This document shows, piece after piece, positions 48,223-59,846 of a DNA stretch of 64,000 bases. The DNA comes from Polaromonas sp. AET17H-212 (GTDB lineage: Bacteria > Pseudomonadota > Gammaproteobacteria > Burkholderiales > Burkholderiaceae_C), in assembly GCF_002379085.1 (NCBI RefSeq), contig NZ_NBZW01000002.1, forward strand, positions 186,001-250,000, read 5' to 3'. Every line of letters starts with the position of its first letter. Position 1 is the stretch's first letter. A program made the translations under genes and the position numbers. Under the pieces are notes generated by a model, which was given only the letters and a program-made list of their open reading frames with translations, made no database searches and had not been told where the DNA came from.

Positions 48223-48299
48223 GGAGTGGTAGTTCAGTTGGTTAGAATACCGGCCTGTCACGCCGGGGGTCGCGGGTTCGAGTCCCGTCCACTCCGCCA
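48223..48299 (+). tRNA. aspT-like: tRNA-Asp (anticodon GTC)
   Basis: Starts GGAGTGGTAGTTCAGTTGG; anticodon loop in CCGGCCTGTCACGCCGG shows GTC; T-arm CGGGTTCGAGTCCCG; ends with CCA. 77 bases. Last gene of the operon; the mobile region begins after its terminator. Confidence 0.96.
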
Positions 48300-48307
48300 A
48301 TAAAATC

Positions 48308-48392: not shown

Positions 48393-48658
48393 GTGTTTGA
48401 TGTTCATCGGTGCCCTGAGTCTGCCGTCACGCGACGCTCGCGTTTTGATTGCGTGATCCGTTCAATCCTTCGAGTCAACGAGTGGACGATGCTCCTGGGC
48501 ATGCCTCACCCGAAGGTGTCTGTCATCCGGAATTACAAGCTCCGCGAGATTTCGCTGGAGCGTTTGATGCAAGCCGTTCTTGCTCTGAACCCGTAGGTTG
48601 AGATTATCGTCAAGCCCTGTCGCAGGGGTGGCAGCGGTTCGATCCGGGTTGCAGTGTG
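48393..48658 (+). pseudogene. remnant of an XRE/HTH_37-type antitoxin gene
   Basis: The frame around 48440-48658 reads IRSILRVNEWTMLLGMPHPK, KVSVIRNYKLREISLERLMQ and then a TAG at 48594, where homologous antitoxin-like regulators continue; the same frame resumes after the stop with VEIIVKPCRR. So an XRE-family HigA-like regulator has been broken by a stop, and its N-terminal part does not look intact. No matching toxin gene is adjacent. It marks the left edge of the accessory region. Sequence 48343-48392 holds two ATGGGAAC(G/A)CTT direct repeats of unknown meaning. Confidence 0.55.
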
Positions 48659-48707
48659 AGAAGATGCGGGAAGAGCACATGAATCCGATATTGAGAGAGG
48701 TGGAGAT

Positions 48708-49682
48708 ATGTCACGAGCAGACCTCATAGTCAGTCTCGTCAAAGCAGGGAGCCAAGGCGATCAACAGTTGCTGCGCACGACAGTTGAAGCGATGGCTGCG
48801 GAAGAGCGTGCCAAACATCATCATCAGCTCGCAGACAAACTCGAACAGAACTTGCGGGCCGTTAATGGACGGCCGCGCACGCCTGAGGTCGTCCGCTCGT
48901 TCGATGGTGGGCACGGCGGCTTGCTGTATGAGGTGGAGCCGCGCCGCGCTCTCGAAGCGCTGTTCCTGGATGCCGCGTCGCTTGCGGCATGCCGCGAGCT
49001 GGTGGAAGAGCAACATCGCAAGGACATCCTTCGTTCATATGGCCTGGAGCCAAGGCACCGCGTTCTGTTGTCCGGCCCGCCGGGCAACGGTAAGACTTCT
49101 CTTGCCGAAGCGATAGCTGCTCAGTTGCTCGTCCCTCTCTTTGTCGTACGGTATGAGGCGGTTATCGGCAGCTTTCTGGGCGAGACCAGCGGGCGACTGA
49201 AGAAGCTGTTCGACTTCGTTCGTACGCATCAATGCGTTCTTTTTTTCGACGAATTCGATACGCTCGGCAAGGAGCGTGGTGATGTCCATGAAACCGGTGA
49301 GATCAAGCGTGTTGTCAGTTCGCTATTGCTGCAGATCGATGCCCTGCCCAGCCATGTCGTGGTGGTGACCGCGACCAATCATGCCGAACTGCTGGACCGG
49401 GCAGTGTGGCGCCGGTTCCAGTTGCGGCTTTCGCTGCCGGCACCGACGCTCGCGCAGAAGGAAGAATGGTTCACGCGCTTTCAGGCCCGTCTGGAAGGAC
49501 CGCTCGGCTTCTCGCCAAAGACCCTGGCCACCAAGATTCAAGCCTCCAGTTTTTCGGACCTGGAGCAGTTTTGCGAGGATATTCAGCGGCGCTATGTGCT
49601 GTCGCTCCCTGATGCGAATCTGAAGCGCATCGTGGCGGAAAGGCTCAAGCAATGGCAGGCTCGATTCACCATTAGCCAATAA
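48708..49682 (+). CDS. AAA+ ATPase, partner of a subtilisin-like protease
   Basis: 324-residue AAA+ ATPase. Residues 1-60 are helical and charged; the ATPase module follows with Walker A GPPGNGKTS (123-131), Walker B VLFFDEFD (Asp181, Glu182), sensor 1 Asn224 in VTATNHAELLD and paired arginines in VWRRF (235-236) as an Arg finger. Similar to classical-clade AAA ATPases that remodel proteins. The following S8 protease gene starts 27 bases later in the same direction, so the pair is an operon; the ATPase may regulate or feed the protease. Start ATG 48708 has an AGAGG-type site upstream. No comparable named system comes to mind. Confidence 0.88.
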   Translation: MSRADLIVSLVKAGSQGDQQLLRTTVEAMAAEERAKHHHQLADKLEQNLRAVNGRPRTPEVVRSFDGGHGGLLYEVEPRRALEALFLDAASLAACRELVEEQHRKDILRSYGLEPRHRVLLSGPPGNGKTSLAEAIAAQLLVPLFVVRYEAVIGSFLGETSGRLKKLFDFVRTHQCVLFFDEFDTLGKERGDVHETGEIKRVVSSLLLQIDALPSHVVVVTATNHAELLDRAVWRRFQLRLSLPAPTLAQKEEWFTRFQARLEGPLGFSPKTLATKIQASSFSDLEQFCEDIQRRYVLSLPDANLKRIVAERLKQWQARFTISQ

Positions 49683-49709
49683 CAAGCGACAACAAGGGAT
49701 GATCAACGG

Positions 49710-52307
49710 ATGGCAACAGGAAATTTCCCACTTCTATTTTTTCCCGAACCTACACCCGCTGATCGAAACCTCCTCCCAGGCGGAGGAGGCAAGGTGCATA
49801 TTCCGGATATTGCACGCCAGCGTTCTCGCATCGCCCCACAGCTCGCAGTGCTGCAACAGGCTTTCGATGCACAGCGCCTGAAGCTGCAGCAGACGGCGCC
49901 GATGGAGAACCCAGAACTGATCCTGGTTCTGGAAGTTGCGAGCACGGTGGAGGACTTCGCCAAGGCCGTTGCCAAGATACCTGGACTGGAATGGCTTATT
50001 GAATGGGCCGAAGACCAGATTGCACCGGATGATGATTTTTTCATCCGAGGCAAGGAAGAAAAGCCTTTCTCGGGGCGCTTGTTTCTGTTGGGAAGCAACC
50101 AGGAGGCGCTCACACAGTTGCTGGCGCTCTGGACCCGTTACCAGAATGACCCCGCCGCTCAGTTCGAGCGCGGACTGAACAAGTTCCGCAACCTGTTTGG
50201 ACAGTTACGCAACATTCGCCATTGGAGCGTGGCGGACCGTATCGATGTTGACGTTCGCCAGTATTGGCAGGATTGTATCGACGATGGCCTGCAGGTCATC
50301 CGGTTCGAGATCGAGGCATGGTATTTCGTCTCGCAGCAGAAGAACGACAAATCCCGCGAGGAAATAGAAACCCTGGTCCAAGGGCTCGGCGGACAGGTTC
50401 TGCGCCGTGCGCTCATTGGAGAGATCGGCTACCACGGGTTTCTTGTGGAAATGCCCGCGCAAGCCGTTGCCGGCGTGATGGCGGGTGAGACACCTGAGTT
50501 GGTGTTGTCTGACCGCATCATGTTCTTCCGGCCCAAAGCGCAATCTATCACCGATGGCGTCAACGAGGCCGATGTACTTTCTCAAGCTCCCGCGGCTGGG
50601 GCCTCGGACCAACTGCCGGTGGTGGCACTGCTCGACGGGTTGCCCTTGCAGAACCACGCGCAGCTACAAGGACGGCTGTTGGTGGATGACCCAGATGGTT
50701 GGGAGGGAAACTACGCGGCCAAGGACCGGGTACACGGCACTGCGATGGCTTCTCTAATCCTGCACGGTGAGTTGGATGGTCCTGCTGAACCTCTGCGACG
50801 CCGCCTCTATGTGCGCCCGGTCCTGCGTCCTGATCCCAATGACAACTTCAACGCCCGCCGGCGCGAGCATACGCCGGACGACGTATTGTTGATCGACTTG
50901 ATCCACCGAGCCGTCAAGCGGATTTGCGAAGGGGAGGGCCAGGAGCCCGCGGCGGCACCGTCGGTGCGTGTCATCAACTTGTCGATTGGCGACGAAGCGC
51001 GCTTGTTCGAACGCCAGATGTCGCCATGGGCGCGCCTGCTGGATTGGCTGTCGTTCCGGTATTCTGTACTGTTCATCGTCAGCGTGGGCAACGACATGCG
51101 GGCGCTCAGCCTCAATACGCCGAGCCACACCTTGGATGGACTGACTGCCGAGCAGCGATCTGCGCTGGCATTCACGGCGATGACCACCGAACACGTGGAG
51201 CGGCGCCTGCTGGCTCCCGCGGAGGCGCTGAATGTGCTGACCGTCGGTGCCTTGCACGCTGACCAAGCAAATCCGCCCGTGGTGCCCGGACGGTTCGACC
51301 TCTTCGCGGCCGGCGGGCTCAGTCCGCTGTCGCGCGTCGGCCATGGTTTTCGTCGAGCCATCAAACCGGACATCCTGATGCCGGGAGGACGTGTGCTTTA
51401 TCGCGCCAGGATGCAGCCCGATCCGACTGCCAGCGTGCTGGAGGTCGTCACGGCAGGGGTGGCACCTGGTCATCGCGTGGCGGTGCCGCCGCTACAAGGG
51501 GAAACACTGGCCGCGACTGCATATACCCGAGGCACCAGCAACGCCGCTGCTCTTGCCAGTCGTGCGGCCGTGCAAGCCTATGACATGCTCGAATTGTTGC
51601 GTGCCGAGGTGGAAGACGCACCGGGAGCCATGTATGACGCAGTGCTGCTCAAAGCGTTGTTGGTTCATGGCGCGCAGTGGGGTGACTGGCCGCAGCGGCT
51701 CTTGGCCGAGCACCCGGAAATCGCGGCGATCACTCATGGAGTGGCGAGGCATGCAGCCGAGAAGGACCTGGTGACGCGATGGTTGGGGTACGGCCCCGTC
51801 GATGTCGAACGAGCCATTACCTGTGCGGCCGAGCGAGCAACGCTGCTCGGTGTGGGAGAGTTGGGTGCAGATGAGGCCTTTGTGTTTTCTGCACCGCTGC
51901 CGCCGACATTGGCCGGCAAGATTGCATGGCGCCGTTTGACCGTGACGTTGGCATGGATGGCGCCAATCAATTGTTCCCACCAGGGGTACCGCCGTGCCAA
52001 GCTCTGGATGACGCCGCCGCAGGATCAACTTCGGATCAAACGAGCCAATAGCGTGCATGACAAGGCGGCGCTACGTGGCTCCGTGCAGCATGAGATCCTT
52101 GAAGGTACGGATGCAGTGGCATTCGTCGATGGCAACCGGTTCCAGTGTAAGGTGAACTGCGCCGCTGACGCGGGTGAGTTGACGGGCAAAGTTCGATTCG
52201 CGGTCTGCGTATCCCTGGAGGTCGCAGTCGGTTCGGGTATTCCTGTGTACCAAGAAATACGCGACAGAATCAAACCGCCGGTCATCATTCAGCCAGTTGC
52301 TGGCTGA
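49710..52307 (+). CDS. S8-family (subtilisin-like) serine protease with novel N-terminal domain
   Basis: 865 residues, no signal peptide, so it should act in the cytoplasm. The catalytic triad is complete: Asp309 (VVALLDGLP), His342 (DRVHGTAMASLI) and Ser610 (YTRGTSNAAALAS), with the oxyanion Asn461 (SVGNDM) and KPDILMPGG before the Ser. Residues 1-300 form a large domain with no family I recognise, and 640-865 a C-terminal region with beta-rich character. Intracellular subtilases usually need control; here the AAA+ ATPase encoded just upstream is the obvious candidate. A perfect hairpin overlaps the stop codon. A protein-degrading defence or conflict role is inference. Confidence 0.88.
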   Translation: MATGNFPLLFFPEPTPADRNLLPGGGGKVHIPDIARQRSRIAPQLAVLQQAFDAQRLKLQQTAPMENPELILVLEVASTVEDFAKAVAKIPGLEWLIEWAEDQIAPDDDFFIRGKEEKPFSGRLFLLGSNQEALTQLLALWTRYQNDPAAQFERGLNKFRNLFGQLRNIRHWSVADRIDVDVRQYWQDCIDDGLQVIRFEIEAWYFVSQQKNDKSREEIETLVQGLGGQVLRRALIGEIGYHGFLVEMPAQAVAGVMAGETPELVLSDRIMFFRPKAQSITDGVNEADVLSQAPAAGASDQLPVVALLDGLPLQNHAQLQGRLLVDDPDGWEGNYAAKDRVHGTAMASLILHGELDGPAEPLRRRLYVRPVLRPDPNDNFNARRREHTPDDVLLIDLIHRAVKRICEGEGQEPAAAPSVRVINLSIGDEARLFERQMSPWARLLDWLSFRYSVLFIVSVGNDMRALSLNTPSHTLDGLTAEQRSALAFTAMTTEHVERRLLAPAEALNVLTVGALHADQANPPVVPGRFDLFAAGGLSPLSRVGHGFRRAIKPDILMPGGRVLYRARMQPDPTASVLEVVTAGVAPGHRVAVPPLQGETLAATAYTRGTSNAAALASRAAVQAYDMLELLRAEVEDAPGAMYDAVLLKALLVHGAQWGDWPQRLLAEHPEIAAITHGVARHAAEKDLVTRWLGYGPVDVERAITCAAERATLLGVGELGADEAFVFSAPLPPTLAGKIAWRRLTVTLAWMAPINCSHQGYRRAKLWMTPPQDQLRIKRANSVHDKAALRGSVQHEILEGTDAVAFVDGNRFQCKVNCAADAGELTGKVRFAVCVSLEVAVGSGIPVYQEIRDRIKPPVIIQPVAG

Positions 52308-52309
52308 AT
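52287..52309. terminator. hairpin overlapping the end of the protease gene
   Basis: ATTCAGCCAG-TTG-CTGGCTGAAT is a perfect 10-bp stem covering the last codons and the stop. There is no T-run after it, so it may be an mRNA-stability or weak terminator structure between convergent operons. Confidence 0.5.
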
Positions 52310-52436
52310 TCGGTACGCGTTTCGTCGCCGTCAACAGAATCGCTGAGGCCACCAAAGGCATATGATGTGTGGTGACGATGACAATCGACCGTTGCCCGTC
52401 AATCGGACAATGACTGCCACAAAGCAGCGAAGTGAA

Positions 52437-52670
52437 TCAGTGCTTCTTGTCTTTTGGCGGGTTCGGGTCGTTCCCGTAGCTGTCACTATCCCGAATTGTT
52501 CCGTCACGGCGGTGGATGACAACCTCAACGTGCTCTCGTTTGGCTTGGTCGCGTGCACGTTCAATCGCTTCTTTTTGTGTGTTGACGACTACGCCTGCGC
52601 GCCCCGCTCCTTCTTTCTTTGTGGCCCAGCCATCTTCATGGGGAACCACATGGACATCCTTTTTGGTCAT
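52437..52670 (-). CDS. DUF2188 domain protein
   Basis: 77 residues: TKKDVHVVPHEDGWATKKEG followed by AGVVVNTQKEAIERARDQAKRE and VEVVIHRRDGTIRDSDSYGNDP is the DUF2188 pattern. Function of the family is unknown. ATG 52670 follows an AAAGGA site by about 9 bases. Third gene of a leftward operon with the XRE-ImmA/IrrE protein. Confidence 0.88.
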   Translation of the reverse strand: MTKKDVHVVPHEDGWATKKEGAGRAGVVVNTQKEAIERARDQAKREHVEVVIHRRDGTIRDSDSYGNDPNPPKDKKH

Positions 52671-52684
52671 TCTTGAAATTCCTT

Positions 52685-53794
52685 TTATGAGCTCACGACG
52701 TGAAGTTGAGGTGGCTTTCTTGTTCGAGCACTTCCATTGCCACCGCCACCGCTGAGCCCCGTGAGCGCGAGCCCAAACACAAGTTGATCCAGCTCTTCTA
52801 CGGGAACACACAACTCGCCCGCGATATCACCTCTCGAAATGCTTTCATCCCGCAACGCGGCAAAAACCTTCTGAAGCACTTGCGAGGTTTCCCGTTGCCC
52901 TTCATCGGGCTCACTCTTGCGATAGCCCCGCGATGACAGCTCGATATACAGCGACTGGTAGTGCCAATCGCTGAGTACGCCGATTGAGTGCAGCCTGTAT
53001 GTCAAGGCTGCCACCGAAACACTCCAGATTTTTTTGAGCTTGATCAGATGGTCGATGGTGGCCATCCGAGGTGCATAGGCGAGCACGCTTGCCCTAGGCA
53101 TCAGAAATGCAGAGGCAAAGGCGTTGGCTTCACGTTCGGCTTCGCGACCTTGTGGTGATCCATGGCGATGTAAGACCAGGTGCCCAAGTTCATGCGCGGC
53201 ATCGAACCGGCTGTGCTCTGCAGACTTCTTTGTGTTCAGGAACACAAATGGCGTTCTCTGACGCCACATAGAAAAAGCATCGACCTCGGCCGCATCTACA
53301 GACAGCGAGAAAACCCGGACCCCCTTCGCTTCGAGCAGGTGGATCATGTTTTTGATCGGTAGCTCGCCAAGCGCCCATTGCTGCCGCAATGCATGTGCGG
53401 CGGCTTCGGGGTTGCCCTCGCGGCTCAGATCCGGCAGATCTGGGGATGGCAGCTCGAAGCGAGCCTCGATCCATGCGTTGAGCATCAGCGCAATGGCGCC
53501 AGCACCCAGCGCCGTATCCCGCTGCCCAGCGGTCATCTTCGACAGCGCCCGAAAACTGGCGATATCGGGTGTAGGTTCGTCCAAATCATCTCCAAAGAAG
53601 AATGCTTGGGGGAACTTCAATACCGATGCCAAGCTGGCCATTCGACTGTCATCAGGTCCAAACTCGCCTTTTTCATAGGCTGAAACCGAACGTGGCTCTA
53701 CGCCAACCGCAGTTGCCAATTTAATCATTGTCAGCCCGCGGCGTTTGCGCGCTAAAGTGAGCCGAGACGGGTTGAAAAGTCGGCTAGCAATCAT
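52685..53794 (-). CDS. XRE regulator fused to ImmA/IrrE-type metallopeptidase
   Basis: 369 residues. The N-terminal HTH (NPSRLTLARKRRGLTMIKLATAVGVEPRSVSAYEKGE) binds DNA; the C-terminal ImmA/IrrE domain has the zinc motif HELGHLVLH and the downstream EREANAFASAFLMP with the third ligand. Such proteins cleave or release repressors when triggered, as in ICE and phage induction. ATGA overlap with the upstream gene shows coupling. ATG 53794 is chosen; longer upstream frame lies in the other gene. Probably controls its own operon, whose promoter contains a palindrome (54494-54505). Confidence 0.92.
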   Translation of the reverse strand: MIASRLFNPSRLTLARKRRGLTMIKLATAVGVEPRSVSAYEKGEFGPDDSRMASLASVLKFPQAFFFGDDLDEPTPDIASFRALSKMTAGQRDTALGAGAIALMLNAWIEARFELPSPDLPDLSREGNPEAAAHALRQQWALGELPIKNMIHLLEAKGVRVFSLSVDAAEVDAFSMWRQRTPFVFLNTKKSAEHSRFDAAHELGHLVLHRHGSPQGREAEREANAFASAFLMPRASVLAYAPRMATIDHLIKLKKIWSVSVAALTYRLHSIGVLSDWHYQSLYIELSSRGYRKSEPDEGQRETSQVLQKVFAALRDESISRGDIAGELCVPVEELDQLVFGLALTGLSGGGGNGSARTRKPPQLHVVSS

Positions 53795-54447
53795 GCTCGA
53801 CGCTTGACGTCGACCGAGATGTCCGGCAGCGACGGCTGTGGCGGCGTGATTTCCACGATCTCGGAGTCGGTCGGGATTGCCTTCAAAATGATTCGCTCGC
53901 GCCATCCGTCCACACGGCCATCTGAACCCATTGACGTCGGCAACGACAGTTCGCACCGGACTTCGCCACGCGCACGGTGGACAAGAAGAATCCAGGTCAT
54001 CCGCTGCTCATCCGTGTTTTCAGGGCGCGCAGGCGACGAGGCGGGCACAGAGTCGAAAACGTAGGGAAGCTCCAACTGCATCTGATTTGAAGTGACAGCC
54101 TCAATAGTGCTCGGCCCTTTGGAAGACTTTGTTGTGGGAGCGGCGTCAGGGCGACCCGTTGCATCGTCGCCGGTCGCTACGACAATTGCCATGGTTCCCG
54201 TTGGATTGATGACCAGCGAATAGTTGTTCTCGTCACAGCGCTCCCATTCAGGCAGCAAGTACTCCCGCAGTCCTCGGACCATGGCCGCCCAGGCGCTAAA
54301 ACCTGGGTAGAGAGGAGGATCGTTCGGCGTGCATGACGCAAAGGCGAGGTATCCACGGCGCACGATCTCTGCCAGCTTGCTTTCTTCGAGTCCGAGTTGA
54401 GTCAGCCGACCGTCAATGTCTCCGGCGTCTGCGTAAATCTGCGTCAT
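53791..54447 (-). CDS. hypothetical protein (218 aa) coupled to the XRE-ImmA/IrrE gene
   Basis: I do not recognise this family. No signal peptide or membrane span; the first 110 residues (EIVRRGYLAFASCTPNDPPLYPGFSAWAAM...) are globular, the middle is Thr/Ser/Pro-rich, and the end is beta-like (MTWILLVHRARGEVRCELSLP). It is the first gene of the leftward operon and ends in ATGA overlap with the regulator-protease gene, which suggests it is a partner, perhaps the substrate or sensor. An AAAGG site precedes ATG 54447. Confidence 0.75.
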   Translation of the reverse strand: MTQIYADAGDIDGRLTQLGLEESKLAEIVRRGYLAFASCTPNDPPLYPGFSAWAAMVRGLREYLLPEWERCDENNYSLVINPTGTMAIVVATGDDATGRPDAAPTTKSSKGPSTIEAVTSNQMQLELPYVFDSVPASSPARPENTDEQRMTWILLVHRARGEVRCELSLPTSMGSDGRVDGWRERIILKAIPTDSEIVEITPPQPSLPDISVDVKRRA

Positions 54448-54487
54448 GTTTAGTTGCCTTTCTGCCCAGTGGGCTTAACTTCCGGTT

Positions 54488-54516
54488 TTTATACCTTAAA
54501 TAAGGAGGTAAAACAA
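54488..54516 (-). promoter_or_regulatory. promoter with built-in operator for the XRE-ImmA operon
   Basis: On the minus strand TTGTTT (54516-54511) and TATAAA (54493-54488) are 17 bases apart. The spacer holds CCTTA-AA-TAAGG (54494-54505), flanked by TACCT and AGGTA. A palindrome between the -35 and -10 is the classical place for a repressor, most likely the XRE domain protein of the same operon. Confidence 0.7.
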
Positions 54517-54903
54517 GAAGTTTCGACTTGACGAAGGCAAAAATCATGTCATACGACCGGACCTCATGGCGAGCTTTGTCGATGCTAGTGCGTCCCGGTA
54601 CGGTCTGCCGGCAGGCTCTGCGGGTTACACCCCGAGTCAGGCTGCGCCTGTCTCGGCCCTTCGGCTTCGATCCTTCACGCCTCCGGCCCGGTGGGCCTGC
54701 GCGCTGCGCTTGCCGTGATGCAGTAGTGGGGGGTGTGGGGCTGGCTTGCTGTTCCCTTCACCGTACCACGGCGTTCTCGCTGTCAAGGTCTGCGCGCACC
54801 TTGTGCGCTTGCGTCCTGGCGGCCGTCTTTGAACCTGTGACAACTGCGCTGCGCCGTGTTTCTGCCGGTCTCGGGCAATCCCGCCCGATGCACGGAGCTG
54901 ACC
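54517..54903 (+). other. GC-rich leader region before radC
   Basis: Almost 390 bases without a supportable gene. The part 54650-54720 (CGGCCCTTCGGCTTCG and CCTGCGCGCTGCGCTTGC) is repeated in diverged form near 57275-57320 and belongs to the backbone spacer sequences of this element. A GGAG at 54894-54897 serves the next gene. Confidence 0.4.
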
Positions 54904-55434
54904 ATGTCGCACGATCTCTTTTCCTCTTTCGCTTCCTTCGATTCTTCCAATTCTTCTGTCCTTCTCGTTCGTGACGTTGCGGGCGACTATCGGCAAGTCG
55001 ATGCCGACGAGGTGCTGCAGGCGGCGCAGCAGGTGCTGCTGGGCCGGGTGCGGGGCAGTGACGTGCTGGCCTCGCCGCAGGCGGTGCGCGACTTCCTGCG
55101 GGTCAAGCTGGGGACGCTGGAGCATGAGGTGTTCGCGGTGGTTCATCTGGATACGCAGAACCGCGTCATCGAATACGTCGAGATGTTTCGCGGTACGGTG
55201 AGCCAGACATCGGTCTATCCCCGCGAGGTGGTCAGGGAATCCATGATGCGCAACTCGGCCGCCTTGCTACTGGTGCACAACCACCCGAGCGGTTCAACCC
55301 AGCCGTCGCGGGCCGACGAGATGCTGACGCAGACGCTCAAGACTGCACTGGCGCTGGTGGACGTACGGGTGCTGGATCACCTGATTGTGGCGGGCAACGA
55401 CATCCTGTCGATGGCGGAGCGCGGGCTGATGTGA
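54904..55434 (+). CDS. radC-like: RadC-like JAB/MPN-domain protein
   Basis: 176 residues. The JAB metalloprotease-type motif H-N-H-P-x(7)-D-x(2) is visible as LLLVHNHPSGSTQPSRADEML, preceded by EVFAVVHLDTQNRVI. Short RadC versions like this are carried by integrative conjugative elements and plasmids; despite the name a repair role is not proven. ATG 54904 follows CGGAGCTGACC. Part of the backbone of a Tn4371-like element. Confidence 0.93.
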   Translation: MSHDLFSSFASFDSSNSSVLLVRDVAGDYRQVDADEVLQAAQQVLLGRVRGSDVLASPQAVRDFLRVKLGTLEHEVFAVVHLDTQNRVIEYVEMFRGTVSQTSVYPREVVRESMMRNSAALLLVHNHPSGSTQPSRADEMLTQTLKTALALVDVRVLDHLIVAGNDILSMAERGLM

Positions 55435-56011
55435 CCCAGGGGGCACCGCCCCCTTTTTGCTTCGCCCTTGGTGTTGGGGAAAGGCTGCGCGCTGGGCTTG
55501 CCTCCAGGGGGCGGCCTTCGGCCCACCCCGCCGCGCTGGCTTTGCGCCCCAGGATACCGCCGAACAGGCGGTGCCTGATCGGCCAGTGCACGTTGTTCAT
55601 TTCACGCTATGCGCTCTGTGTACCACCAGCCAGGCGTGACTACGGCACGCGGGGCGCTCGCCGCGCGGCGTGGGTTCGGCGCCCAAGGTCGCAGACTTGG
55701 CCGTTGACCGGTCATCCGTCTTGCCCCTACTTCATCACTGATCCCGCGACCGTAGCCCGCGGTGCCTGGCCGTCAAGGCGCGCAGGGCCGTGTCCTCGCC
55801 TGCGGCTGCGGGCCGCACCAACCCTGCGCTTGTTCCCCTGACAGCCATTCCCCGCCGGCCCGGTTATTCGCGGGCGATGAACTCAGGAAAGACGGCGGTA
55901 ACGGCGACCAGCCCAGGTCACTGCGCCGAACCCACCGAAGCCACACCGGGCTCCGAATCTTGGAATCCGGTCAGCTTTGATACCACAGCTTGTAACCACT
56001 GGAGAAATACC
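55435..56011 (+). other. intergenic region with backbone repeat
   Basis: About 575 bases with no gene I can support. It holds the first copy of a 28-base repeat (55557-55584). GGAGAAATACC before 56012 is the ribosome-binding site of the next gene. Small frames through it are GC-rich shadows. Confidence 0.4.
55557..55584 (+). repeat. 28-base direct repeat, copy 1
   Basis: Its end GGTGCCTGATCGGCC and start CCGCCGAACAGGC recur at 57376-57403 with two mismatches. The two copies flank the DUF932-DUF736 stretch, 1.8 kb apart. Confidence 0.6.
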
Positions 56012-57403: not shown

Positions 57404-57680
57404 GGTAGAGCAGCCACGCCGTCGCGCCGATTCCGCCGACATTTCGCAGTTCTTCTCATAGGCTGTTGGCGGCCATTCCCCGCCTTCGGTCCTATGACTG
57501 CAACCTGTCTGCTTCATGATGCGCCTCGGTGACCGAGACCGCTGGATTTGACGGCGTCATCCCCCCAAGCAATCGAGAACCTAAATCGATCCGATAGGCC
57601 CCGGTCAGTCATGCAAAATGCAGGTATGTACAACAGCGCGCGCCTAGCCATTGGGGCGCCATGCACAGGGAGTAATCAAC

Positions 57681-59846
57681 TTGAAGCTGATCAGTCTTGA
57701 CCTCGAGAACTGCTACGGAGTGCGCAAGTTGCAGACGAGCCTGGATTTTTCAAAGTCCAGCGCGATCTCGGTGTACGCGCCGAACGGGTCGATGAAGAGT
57801 TCGTTGGCACAAACCTTTCAGGACGTGGCCGACGACAAAGACTCCAGGGACCGTATTTTCCCGGATCGCAAGACCAAGCGCTTGATCCTGGACGAGAACG
57901 GCAAAGACCTCCCGAAAGGAAGCGTGCTAGTGGTGCGTCCGTATGACGAAGTTTTTGGAAACACCACGCAAATATCTACCCTGCTCGTCAATCCGGACCT
58001 GCGCAAGGAATACGAGACACTTTACGCGGACATCGATACCGCGAAGGCTGCCTTCTTGAAAGGGCTGAAGGATCAGTCTGGCTCGAAGAGGAATCTGGAG
58101 AAGGAACTCTCGGCGACATTCACCGCAAGTGAAGATCAGTTCTATGTCGCATTGAATCGGATCAAGGGTGAACTGGCTTCGCAAACCGAGGTGCCGTTCG
58201 CGGCGGTACCCTACGACACCGTAATGGATGAGAAGGTGCTGGCCTTCCTCGATACCAAGGACTTCAGGACGTCCATTGACGCCTATGTCAAGAAATATAA
58301 CGAATTGTTGGCAGCGTCAAAGTATTTCAAGAAGGGCACCTTCAACTTCTACAACGCCTCGACCATCGCCAAACAGTTGGCCGACAATGGGTTCTTCAAA
58401 GCGAAGCACACGGTGAGCCTGAATGCAGAAACGCCGCTGGAAATCAAGTCCGAGAAGGATTTGGAGGCGCTGATCAACAAGGAGAAAGAGGCGATCTCCA
58501 ATGACGCAGATCTGCGGAAAAAATTCGCGGATATCGAGAAGCAGATCCAGAAGAACGTCACCCTGCGCGATTTCGAGAACTATCTGCAAAACCATGAGGA
58601 GCTCTTGGCAGAGTTCGCAAATATTCCGGCGTTCAAGGAAAAGCTCTGGAAGTCGTACATCCGGAATTGCTACGACCTGTACATCGCGTTGTTGGAAAAA
58701 TATCAGGCTGCGGAGGCGCGCCGCAAGGAGATCCAGGAGCAGGCCAGTAAGGAGCGCACCCTGTGGGAGCTAGTAATTGACATCTTCAACCAACGCTTCT
58801 TCGTTCCCTTCAAGCTCGTGCCTGCTAATAAGATCGAGGTCATGCTTGGCCAGCAGGACATCCTGACCCTCGGCTTCATTTTTGAGGACGGCGCCGAAAA
58901 GGCGTCGGTGGGCCGCGATACCCTGATGCAAGCCCTCAGCACCGGTGAGAAGAAGGCGTTCTACGTGCTGAACATCTTGTTTGAGATCGAGGTGCGTCGC
59001 AAGGCCAAGGTCGATACGCTGATCGTGGTCGACGATATCGCGGACTCGTTCGACTACAAGAACAAGTACGCCATCATCCAATACCTGATGGACATCTCCG
59101 TGGACGATTGCTTCAAGCAGCTGATTCTCACGCACAACTTCGATTTCTACCGCACGCTGGAGAGCCGACTCGTCAACCGTAGTAGTTGCTTCATGGTTTC
59201 GAAAGGGAGCACAGGGGTTCAGTTGGAGAAGGCAATTGGCGTAAAAAACGTGTTCGTGCGGGACTGGAAGAATGCGTTCTACACCGACACCAAGAAGAAG
59301 GTCGCCTGCGTTCCGTTCATGCGCAACCTAATCGAGTACACGAAAGGCGAAGGCGACGCGGATTTCCTCCAGCTCACGTCACTGCTGCACTGGAAGCCTG
59401 ACTCTGCAAAGATCACGATCGGGGACTTGGACGTCATCTACAGCAGGCTTTTCTCTGACAACGGCAAATCACCGGACGGCACTATCGCTGTGATGAACCT
59501 CATCGAAGGCGAAGCGAGCAATTGCCTCAAGGCGCCGGACGGGATTAACTTCGAGAACAAGGTGGTTTTGTCCATCGCAACCCGACTTGCAGCCGAGCGG
59601 TTCATGGTGAAGAAGATCAGCGACGATGCATGGGTGGCCTCGATCACCGCGAATCAGACACCAGCTTTGCTGCAGCGCTTCAAGAACAACTTTTCGACAG
59701 AGACTGCATCCATCTCCGCGCTACAGCGCGTCGTGCTTATGACACCGGAGAACATCCACCTGAATTCCTTCATGTACGAGCCGATCCTCGACATGTCCGA
59801 TAGCCATTTGCGTAGGCTGTACGAGGACGTCCTATCGCTTGCTTAG
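57681..59846 (+). CDS. SMC/ABC-type ATPase with atypical Walker A loop (candidate defence gene)
   Basis: 721 residues. The P-loop reads VYAPNGSMKSSLAQTF (residues 31-46): APNGSMKSS has Met where the usual GxxGxGKS has Gly. The rest of an ABC-type head is present: signature LSTGEKKA (419-426), Walker B TLIVVDDIADSFD (Asp451, Asp452 in place of the usual Asp-Glu) and H-switch His485 (ILTHNFDF). Residues ~110-380 between the halves are helical, coiled-coil-like. This layout resembles AAA_13/RloC-type anti-phage ATPases, but no HNH or other nuclease motif is visible in the last ~230 residues. TTG 57681 is chosen because GGGAG (57668-57672) lies 8 bases upstream. It sits between backbone genes with slightly different codon use, as cargo. 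Confidence 0.82.
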   Translation: MKLISLDLENCYGVRKLQTSLDFSKSSAISVYAPNGSMKSSLAQTFQDVADDKDSRDRIFPDRKTKRLILDENGKDLPKGSVLVVRPYDEVFGNTTQISTLLVNPDLRKEYETLYADIDTAKAAFLKGLKDQSGSKRNLEKELSATFTASEDQFYVALNRIKGELASQTEVPFAAVPYDTVMDEKVLAFLDTKDFRTSIDAYVKKYNELLAASKYFKKGTFNFYNASTIAKQLADNGFFKAKHTVSLNAETPLEIKSEKDLEALINKEKEAISNDADLRKKFADIEKQIQKNVTLRDFENYLQNHEELLAEFANIPAFKEKLWKSYIRNCYDLYIALLEKYQAAEARRKEIQEQASKERTLWELVIDIFNQRFFVPFKLVPANKIEVMLGQQDILTLGFIFEDGAEKASVGRDTLMQALSTGEKKAFYVLNILFEIEVRRKAKVDTLIVVDDIADSFDYKNKYAIIQYLMDISVDDCFKQLILTHNFDFYRTLESRLVNRSSCFMVSKGSTGVQLEKAIGVKNVFVRDWKNAFYTDTKKKVACVPFMRNLIEYTKGEGDADFLQLTSLLHWKPDSAKITIGDLDVIYSRLFSDNGKSPDGTIAVMNLIEGEASNCLKAPDGINFENKVVLSIATRLAAERFMVKKISDDAWVASITANQTPALLQRFKNNFSTETASISALQRVVLMTPENIHLNSFMYEPILDMSDSHLRRLYEDVLSLA

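What the first reader, a model, noticed from the sequence alone, without database searches (positions are those of the whole stretch)
48708..52307. AAA+ ATPase and intracellular subtilisin operon: candidate undescribed defence or conflict system
A AAA+ ATPase (Walker A 123-131, Walker B Asp181-Glu182) and a non-secreted 865-residue S8 protease with a complete Asp309-His342-Ser610 triad are encoded 27 bases apart on a mobile region. The protease has a ~300-residue N-terminal domain I cannot assign. An ATPase-gated cytoplasmic protease would fit a trigger-and-kill or substrate-unfolding mechanism. I know of no characterised system that matches this pair exactly; a defence role is inferred from the setting.
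Basis: partly seen in the sequence, partly recalled or inferred. Interest (0 to 1): 0.82.

Follow-up and report, generated by a model that had tools for sequence, protein, structure and literature searches.

The report
IetAS protease toxin-antitoxin and defence pair
A bacterial mobile DNA island carries a known kind of two-gene weapon, an ATPase thought to keep a cell-damaging protease in check; the pair itself is not new, but some of its distant relatives sit inside larger anti-virus gene clusters in a way that is worth testing.

Summary
The claim that no characterised system matches is wrong: both proteins match PADLOC's IetA and IetS full length (E 5e-153 and 0). AAA-ATPase/subtilase pairs are known antitoxin-toxin systems (PMC5006074, PMC6755753, PMC8562856) and are named anti-phage in NCBIfam. 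This copy is a divergent subtype, below NCBIfam's cut-offs. IetA lies upstream of IetS in 77 of 80 relatives; three are cut by contig ends. The pair sits in a tRNA-Asp island with conjugation genes and defence candidates, and has moved between genera. New here: the N-terminal domain is predicted as two ferredoxin-like modules, the second in prodomain position; the upstream HTH gene of close relatives is decayed; in related clades IetAS is embedded in a BREX-related operon (8 loci) or between type III mod and res genes (5 loci). Verdict: known kind, modest interest.

The parts
48223..48299 (+). tRNA-Asp gene, left attachment site of the island
   Evidence: ARAGORN; bases 48255-48300 recur exactly at own-genome contig C2:350957-351002, beside an integrase gene
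48491..48659 (+). decayed remnant of an HTH_37 (XRE-type) regulator gene that is intact 45-48 nt upstream of ietA in seven close relatives
   Evidence: blastn homology from about 48491 and an in-frame stop; HTH_37 E 1.2e-19 in L037 and 5.2e-19 in L033
48708..49682 (+). ietA, AAA+ ATPase, 324 aa; Walker A 123-131, pore-loop-1 motif F156-L157-G158, Walker B 181-182, R235-R236
   Evidence: PADLOC IetA E 5.3e-153, residues 1-321; Pfam AAA; residue conservation
49710..52307 (+). ietS, S8 (subtilisin-type) protease, 865 aa, no signal peptide seen by eye
   Evidence: PADLOC IetS E 0, residues 1-860; Pfam Peptidase_S8
49905..50225 (+). [quoted passage not shown]
   Evidence: AlphaFold2 model of residues 1-298, mean pLDDT 84.1
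50286..50537 (+). IetS residues 193-276: predicted second ferredoxin-like module, in prodomain position directly before the protease domain
   Evidence: the N-terminal model matches POIA1 (1v5i_B, probability 0.97, E 0.041) and ribosomal protein S6 (the output does not say which module matches)
50538..50615 (+). IetS residues 277-302: poorly conserved linker between prodomain-like module and protease (low pLDDT for 279-298)
50619..51674 (+). IetS residues 304-655: S8 catalytic domain with D309, H342, N461, S610
52437..52811 (-). DUF2188 protein (PADLOC candidate PDC-S16), neighbour
52685..54447 (-). RmrA-like HTH-M78 protein (52685-53956) and RmrT-like protein (53791-54447), neighbouring defence-associated pair
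57651..59846 (+). PDC-S46, SMC/RecF-like ATPase, neighbouring defence candidate
   Evidence: PADLOC E 3.1e-275

Best explanation
The pair is an IetAS module of a divergent subtype carried by an integrative element at tRNA-Asp. IetS is a cytoplasmic subtilase that damages the cell when it is free to act; IetA is the AAA+ partner that keeps it harmless. Step 1 (neutralisation shown for relatives, inferred here): the AAA-first operon supplies enough IetA to hold IetS in check. Step 2 (inferred from the predicted fold): IetS is made with two ferredoxin-like modules ahead of its protease domain, the second placed like a subtilisin prodomain, so it is held partly latent, and IetA, a threading-type AAA+ ring by its pore-loop motif, acts on IetS to keep it so. 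Step 3 (inferred): phage infection, or loss of the element, upsets IetA or its supply; IetS is released, cleaves cytoplasmic proteins and stops the infected or element-free cell. The same wiring would give abortive phage defence and stabilise the island.
For: Full-length family matches. Gene pair, order and strand conserved in 77 of 80 loci, the remaining 3 cut by contig ends; IetA and IetS distances correlate, r 0.888, 0 of 999 permutations as high (host relatedness not removed). Catalytic and Walker residues invariant in 73 of 73. Among 80 loci IetS is interrupted or shortened beside an intact IetA in three (L062, L087, and L094 at its C-terminus), and no IetA away from a contig end is, as toxin-antitoxin logic predicts, but the numbers are tiny and these are draft contigs. 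Tested relatives: SgiT toxic, neutralised by SgiA (PMC5006074, section 4); in syn3A the antitoxin knockout alone is lethal and the pair knockout viable (PMC6755753, passages); the same mycoplasma pair and homologues in other species confirmed (PMC8562856, passages). Prodomain-like fold. Pore-loop aromatic F/Y at IetA 156 in 72 of 73, then L-G in 73 of 73. Defence link: NCBIfam names, a review table listing ietAS among systems escaped through changes in functional phage proteins (PMC10286901, passage), defence neighbours and restriction-modification neighbours of some relatives.
Against: No activity of this copy or its subtype has been tested. It scores far below NCBIfam's cut-offs (216.7 of 510 bits; 76.4 of 900), so transfer from tested members is long-range. 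In SGI1 the operon gave no post-segregational killing from its own promoter, which weighs against a simple maintenance role. The prodomain match is weak (E 0.041, ferredoxin-like folds are common), and IetS relatives are toxic when expressed alone, so the N-terminal modules do not by themselves silence the enzyme. The joined IetA-IetS model gave no interface score. The window copy has lost the HTH gene of its close relatives, so its regulation may be impaired.
Confidence: 0.65

Rival explanations
1. Two-part AAA+ protease machine: IetA recognises and unfolds specific (phage) proteins and threads them into IetS, as FtsH, Clp and the proteasome do; IetA is an activator rather than an antitoxin.
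For: The listed best structural matches of the joined model are AAA+ motors such as FtsH, PAN, p97 and spastin; pore-loop-1 aromatic kept in 72 of 73 and Leu-Gly in 73 of 73; correlated divergence.
Against: In the two tested systems (SGI1; the M. mycoides pair, two papers) the ATPase suppresses toxicity of the protease and is not needed for it.
Confidence: 0.2
2. Island-stability module only: the pair keeps the integrative element in the cell and phage protection is incidental.
For: Position at the tRNA-Asp end of an element; tRNA 3' ends face the pair in most tRNA-bearing relatives; the SGI1 relative is described as a maintenance system; 80 of 72,556 plasmid records carry an IetS relative.
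Against: Defence neighbours here, restriction-modification operon partners in related clades, anti-phage naming of the family; no post-segregational killing from the native SGI1 promoter.
Confidence: 0.12
3. Chromosomal housekeeping protease pair, not a conflict system.
For: None found beyond intact reading frames.
Against: Sparse: 10 of 299 genomes of the same family, own included, in 10 of 141 genera; horizontal transfer, 96% identity over 7.5 kb against 76% for the flanking chromosome in another genus.
Confidence: 0.02

Closest known systems
IetAS (IetA/IetS; NCBIfam IteA/IteS), incl. pTiC58 ietAS and SGI1 sgiAT
   Same: AAA-ATPase and subtilase genes as a pair; here and in 77 of 80 relatives the ATPase gene comes first; same catalytic and Walker residues; mobile setting; PADLOC profiles match full length
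   Different: Divergent subtype: below NCBIfam equivalog cut-offs; 25-29% identity in aligned parts to the IetS of a second IetAS group in the same bacterial family, L009-L011, which also falls below those cut-offs; HTH_37 gene upstream in its own clade, decayed here. Identity to the pTiC58 and SGI1 proteins was not measured
Mycoplasma A132/T133 (_0132/_0133) AAA-ATPase/subtilisin-like toxin-antitoxin
   Same: Same gene order and roles
   Different: Chromosomal, 353 and 757 aa; identity to the window not measured here
Subtilisin with I9 prodomain (recalled) and the inhibitor POIA1
   Same: Ferredoxin-like module directly before an S8 domain in the predicted model
   Different: Weak structural match, two modules instead of one, no signal peptide seen, presumably cytoplasmic
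Type-3 BREX-related (BR) systems of PMC12839542
   Same: Eight relatives of the pair lie inside an operon with DUF499 ATPase, PglZ-like protein, DUF1156-type N6 methylase and a 170-aa protein; three extended loci continue with a 922-928 aa protein, of which the one scanned is an SNF2 helicase
   Different: None of these genes was found beside the window pair; the paper's main text does not mention subtilisin, subtilase or IetS

Membership tests
IetAS (PADLOC sense) | AAA+ ATPase gene directly upstream of an S8 protease gene on one strand | tested here: met
   27-base gap; 77 of 80 relatives likewise
IetAS (PADLOC sense) | full-length match of both proteins to IetA and IetS profiles | tested here: met
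   E 5.3e-153 (1-321 of 324) and E 0 (1-860 of 865)
IetAS (PADLOC sense) | intact Walker A/B and Asp-His-Ser triad | tested here: met
IetAS (PADLOC sense) | protease toxic alone, ATPase neutralises | not testable with these tools
   shown for SgiAT and mycoplasma relatives only
IetAS (PADLOC sense) | anti-phage activity | not testable with these tools
   family naming only
NCBIfam equivalogs IteA (NF042959) and IteS (NF042956) | score above curated cut-off | tested here: not met
   216.7 of 510 and 76.4 of 900 bits; so not filed as an IteA/IteS equivalog
AAA+ compartmental protease (FtsH/Clp type) | ATPase threads substrates into the protease | not testable with these tools
   pore-loop motif present; no complex score obtained
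Type-3 BREX-related system | DUF499 ATPase, N6 methylase, PglZ and helicase in the locus | tested here: not met
   not among the window neighbours scanned and no PglZ match at E 0.001 in the own genome; met in large part for eight other loci

The most novel reading that the evidence does not exclude
In the wider subtype, IetAS is a movable proteolytic effector cassette that has been built into DNA-modification defence systems: between the PglZ-like and methylase genes of a BREX-related operon (8 loci, one clade) and between mod and res of type III restriction (5 loci, one clade). There DNA sensing by the host system, not antitoxin decay, would release the protease. The stand-alone copy in the window would be the same cassette in its simplest form.
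Probability: 0.45. Interest if true: 0.65.

Novelty: new member of a known kind. Interest (0 to 1): 0.36.

Why it matters
The pair extends a known family whose mechanism is still called unknown (PMC11878078, passage). Three things make that question testable: a predicted prodomain-like latch in IetS, a conserved threading motif in IetA, and natural operons in which IetAS is wired to DNA-modification systems, which suggests protease effectors inside BREX-like defence.

Tried and rejected
Housekeeping protease: rejected by sparse distribution and transfer. Undescribed system: rejected. Phage cargo: 0 of 50,697 phage records by tblastn and one locus among 38 pattern-matching stretches of the viral contigs, so phages do not look like the main carrier. 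Solved relatives of IetS by sequence: none up to E 0.01.

Neighbours: PADLOC scans of 69 upstream and 69 downstream proteins list only the 25 commonest of 60 and of 158 families. The largest groups were type III methylases upstream (3) and, downstream, HmaB-like methylases (8), type III Res (4), type IIG (2) and type I methylases (2); how many neighbours had no match is not told by the output. The choice was mechanical: the nearest frame of 120+ aa on each side, 138 proteins from 75 of 80 loci.

tRNA adjacency: 7 of 65 loci have a tRNA within 1.5 kb upstream, where 2.5 are expected from the same loci's more distant stretches; 2 loci among 68 have one (3 tRNAs) within 1.5 kb downstream. The orientation bias, counted by me from the listing, is clearer: 3' end towards the pair in 15 of 16 loci with an upstream tRNA and in 3 of 4 with a downstream one.

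The joined model did not resolve an interface; VIA-align was not available. The tree was the quick method, its outgroup rows are long and it warns of long branches meeting, so only small starred clades are used. The hhalign test of the PglZ-like protein is moderate (probability 66.9, E 5.3e-5), and Pfam gives no PglZ match for it up to E 1. Of the 11 rows in the BREX-related clade, L077 shows only pieces of DUF499 and PglZ-like genes, and in L069 and L083 none of the partner genes was found in the DNA held, so the linkage there is not shown to be general. In the nine-row clade with the five type III loci, L095 has only fragments of res and L098, L104 and L105 showed neither gene in the DNA held; distant mod/res matches also occur near L110, and a mod match near L039.
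Full report
Observation. Walker A is GPPGNGKTS at 123-131, Walker B ends in Asp181-Glu182, and Asp309, His342 and Ser610 are correct. Pfam gives AAA (E 2.3e-29) and Peptidase_S8 (E 1.4e-17, residues 304-655). The S8 family is found once in this genome.

Identity. PADLOC names the proteins IetA (E 5.3e-153, residues 1-321) and IetS (E 0, residues 1-860). NCBIfam's equivalog models for the anti-phage ATPase and peptidase also match, but far below their cut-offs: 216.7 of 510 bits and 76.4 of 900 bits. The IetAS pairs of a second group in the same bacterial family fall below as well (249.6 bits for L009 IetA; 131.8, 131.0 and 116.5 bits for the IetS of L009, L010 and L011), so those models are narrow. 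I file the pair as IetAS in the broad, PADLOC sense and as a divergent subtype, not as the NCBIfam equivalog.

What is known of the family. SGI1 sgiAT: the subtilase is toxic in E. coli and the AAA-ATPase neutralises it; the operon gave no post-segregational killing from its own promoter (PMC5006074, section 4 read, and passages). Mycoplasma: deleting the ATPase alone is lethal and deleting the pair is not (PMC6755753, passages); the same pair and homologues in other mycoplasmas were confirmed as toxin-antitoxin systems (PMC8562856, passages). These papers cite the pTiC58 work of Yamamoto 2009, which is not held. One paper calls the anti-phage mechanism of IetAS unknown (PMC11878078, passages), and a review table lists ietAS among systems that phages escape through changes in functional proteins (PMC10286901, one passage). 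That Gao et al. 2020 tested IetAS against phages is my recollection, not a call.

Relatives. Of 299 genomes of the same family 10 have an IetS match at E 1e-20, the own genome included, in 10 of 141 genera; all 10 loci hold an IetA-like frame. A pattern-based scan of the genome collection (one genome for each of 84,980 species) gave 107 relatives among 172 stretches, of which the best 80 were kept. In 77 of the 80 an IetA frame lies upstream on the same strand; L093, L111 and L112 lack it because the contig ends there. The triad residues and the oxyanion Asn were found in 79 of 80; the exception is L062, whose best piece ends before the Ser. The key residues are invariant in the 73 full-length pairs, window included. 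IetA and IetS distance matrices correlate at r 0.888, 0 of 999 permutations as high, which shows joint inheritance but does not separate it from host relatedness. IetS relatives occur in 80 of 72,556 plasmid records, 62 of them with 80% or more of the query in one place, in 0 of 50,697 phage records, and in one viral contig.

Setting. Bases 48255-48300, the 3' end of tRNA-Asp, recur exactly at own-genome C2:350957-351002, beside an integrase gene at about C2:349.3-350.7 kb. Between them lie a relaxase-type protein (DUF3363 with a MobA/VirD2 match), T4SS coupling protein, TrbE-, TrbL- and TrbI-type proteins, a RepA-type replication initiator and a ParA-type ATPase. The stretch also contains flagellar- or type III secretion-type export genes, including the genome's only FHIPEP (FlhA-type) gene, so I do not claim that all 117 kb move as one unit. 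In another genus (G044, L031/L037) the same element sits beyond the same tRNA cluster: 96% identity over window 48491-55988, against 76% for the chromosome left of it. There two further frames, one a 781-aa protein with weak HSDR_N and STAND matches, lie between tRNA and HTH gene; in the window they are missing. Neighbours in the window are RmrA/RmrT-like genes, PDC-S16 and PDC-S46.

The lost third gene. Seven close relatives (L033-L038, L041) have an HTH_37-type gene ending 45-48 nt before ietA (two of them scanned with Pfam; the other six match L037's at 4e-44 or better, and L039 has a weaker one). In the window only its 3' part remains, with a stop in frame. The pair here probably lacks its usual regulator. 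In the tree the window is sister to L037 within the clade of these seven.

The N-terminal domain. [quoted passage not shown] Foldseek against PDB gives no strong whole-chain match (3 hits at E 0.001 or better, TM about 0.2), but single ferredoxin-like domains match at probability 0.9 or more: ribosomal protein S6, and POIA1, an inhibitor crystallised with subtilisin BPN' (1v5i_B, probability 0.97, E 0.041). The second module stands where subtilisin prodomains stand (recalled), and the linker 277-302 is the least conserved stretch (on average 0.22 of rows share the window's residue, against 0.55 in 303-660). I read this as a prodomain-like latch; the fold is supported, the function is inference.

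The ATPase. The 50 listed matches of the joined model are AAA+ proteins, among them FtsH, proteasomal ATPases, p97 and spastin. Position 156 is Phe or Tyr in 72 of 73 and is followed by invariant Leu-Gly, the aromatic pore-loop pattern of threading AAA+ enzymes (motif recalled; counts). So IetA probably forms a threading ring; whether its client is IetS or something else is open. The joined model of both chains (pLDDT 72.1, pTM 0.65) is not evidence for a complex.

Related clades. In eight loci (L068, L072, L074, L085, L090, L096, L100, L106) the pair lies in the order DUF499 ATPase, PglZ-like, IetA, IetS, N6 methylase, 170-aa protein (DUF499 cut by the contig end in L090). They fall in one starred clade of 11 rows; of the other three, L077 has pieces of two partner genes, L069 and L083 none in the DNA held. 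The three loci that I extended continue with a 922-928 aa protein; the one scanned is an SNF2 helicase with a weak RapA_C match. The methylase has an N6_N4_Mtase match and a sub-threshold DUF1156 match; the PglZ-like assignment rests on SDHG and HGG motifs (recalled as PglZ-type; sequences) and on hhalign at probability 66.9, while Pfam shows no match. This fits the gene set of the Type-3 BREX-related systems of PMC12839542 (passages), whose main text has no occurrence of subtilisin, subtilase or IetS. A search for papers with three of DUF499, DUF1156, PglZ, subtilisin, peptidase S8 returned that paper alone; supplements could not be read. L045 carries DUF499 and PglZ-like genes nearby on the other strand. 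In five other loci (L081, L092, L097, L103, L108) a type III mod gene lies just upstream and res downstream; all five fall in one starred clade of nine rows.

Judgement. A correct observation of a known kind of system, in a subtype that databases already cover. The surprise lies outside the window, in the embedding of the cassette in modification-based defence operons.

Noticed in passing
L116:2274-16248, L117:4498-18478, L118:8904-19100; also L072, L085, L090, L096, L100: IetAS embedded in a BREX-related operon: DUF499 ATPase, PglZ-like, IetA, IetS, N6 methylase, 170-aa protein, then a 922-928 aa protein in the three extended loci (SNF2 helicase in the one scanned).
   Followed up: partly
L081, L092, L097, L103, L108: IetAS between type III restriction-modification mod and res genes.
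   Followed up: partly
L033:8666-11464 and L038:8756-11518: MmeI-like type IIG restriction enzyme directly downstream of ietS in L033; L038's neighbour is 69% identical to it.
   Followed up: no
own genome C2:288001-348000 (L027-L029): Flagellar- or type III secretion-type export genes and GGDEF/EAL signalling genes, with the genome's only FHIPEP gene, lie between the tRNA-Asp attachment repeats; FHIPEP is patchy in the genus (13 of 31 genomes, several of them incomplete).
   Followed up: partly
L031:12216-14561: 781-aa protein with weak HSDR_N and STAND matches beside tRNA-Asp in the related genus, missing from the window: a possible defence gene.
   Followed up: no
L062, L087, L094: Interrupted or shortened ietS beside intact ietA; described only.
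   Followed up: no
80 genome loci: tRNA 3' ends face the ietAS pair in 15 of 16 loci with an upstream tRNA and 3 of 4 with a downstream one, at many different tRNA genes.
   Followed up: partly
window 57651-59846: PDC-S46, an SMC/RecF-like 731-aa candidate defence ATPase.
   Followed up: no
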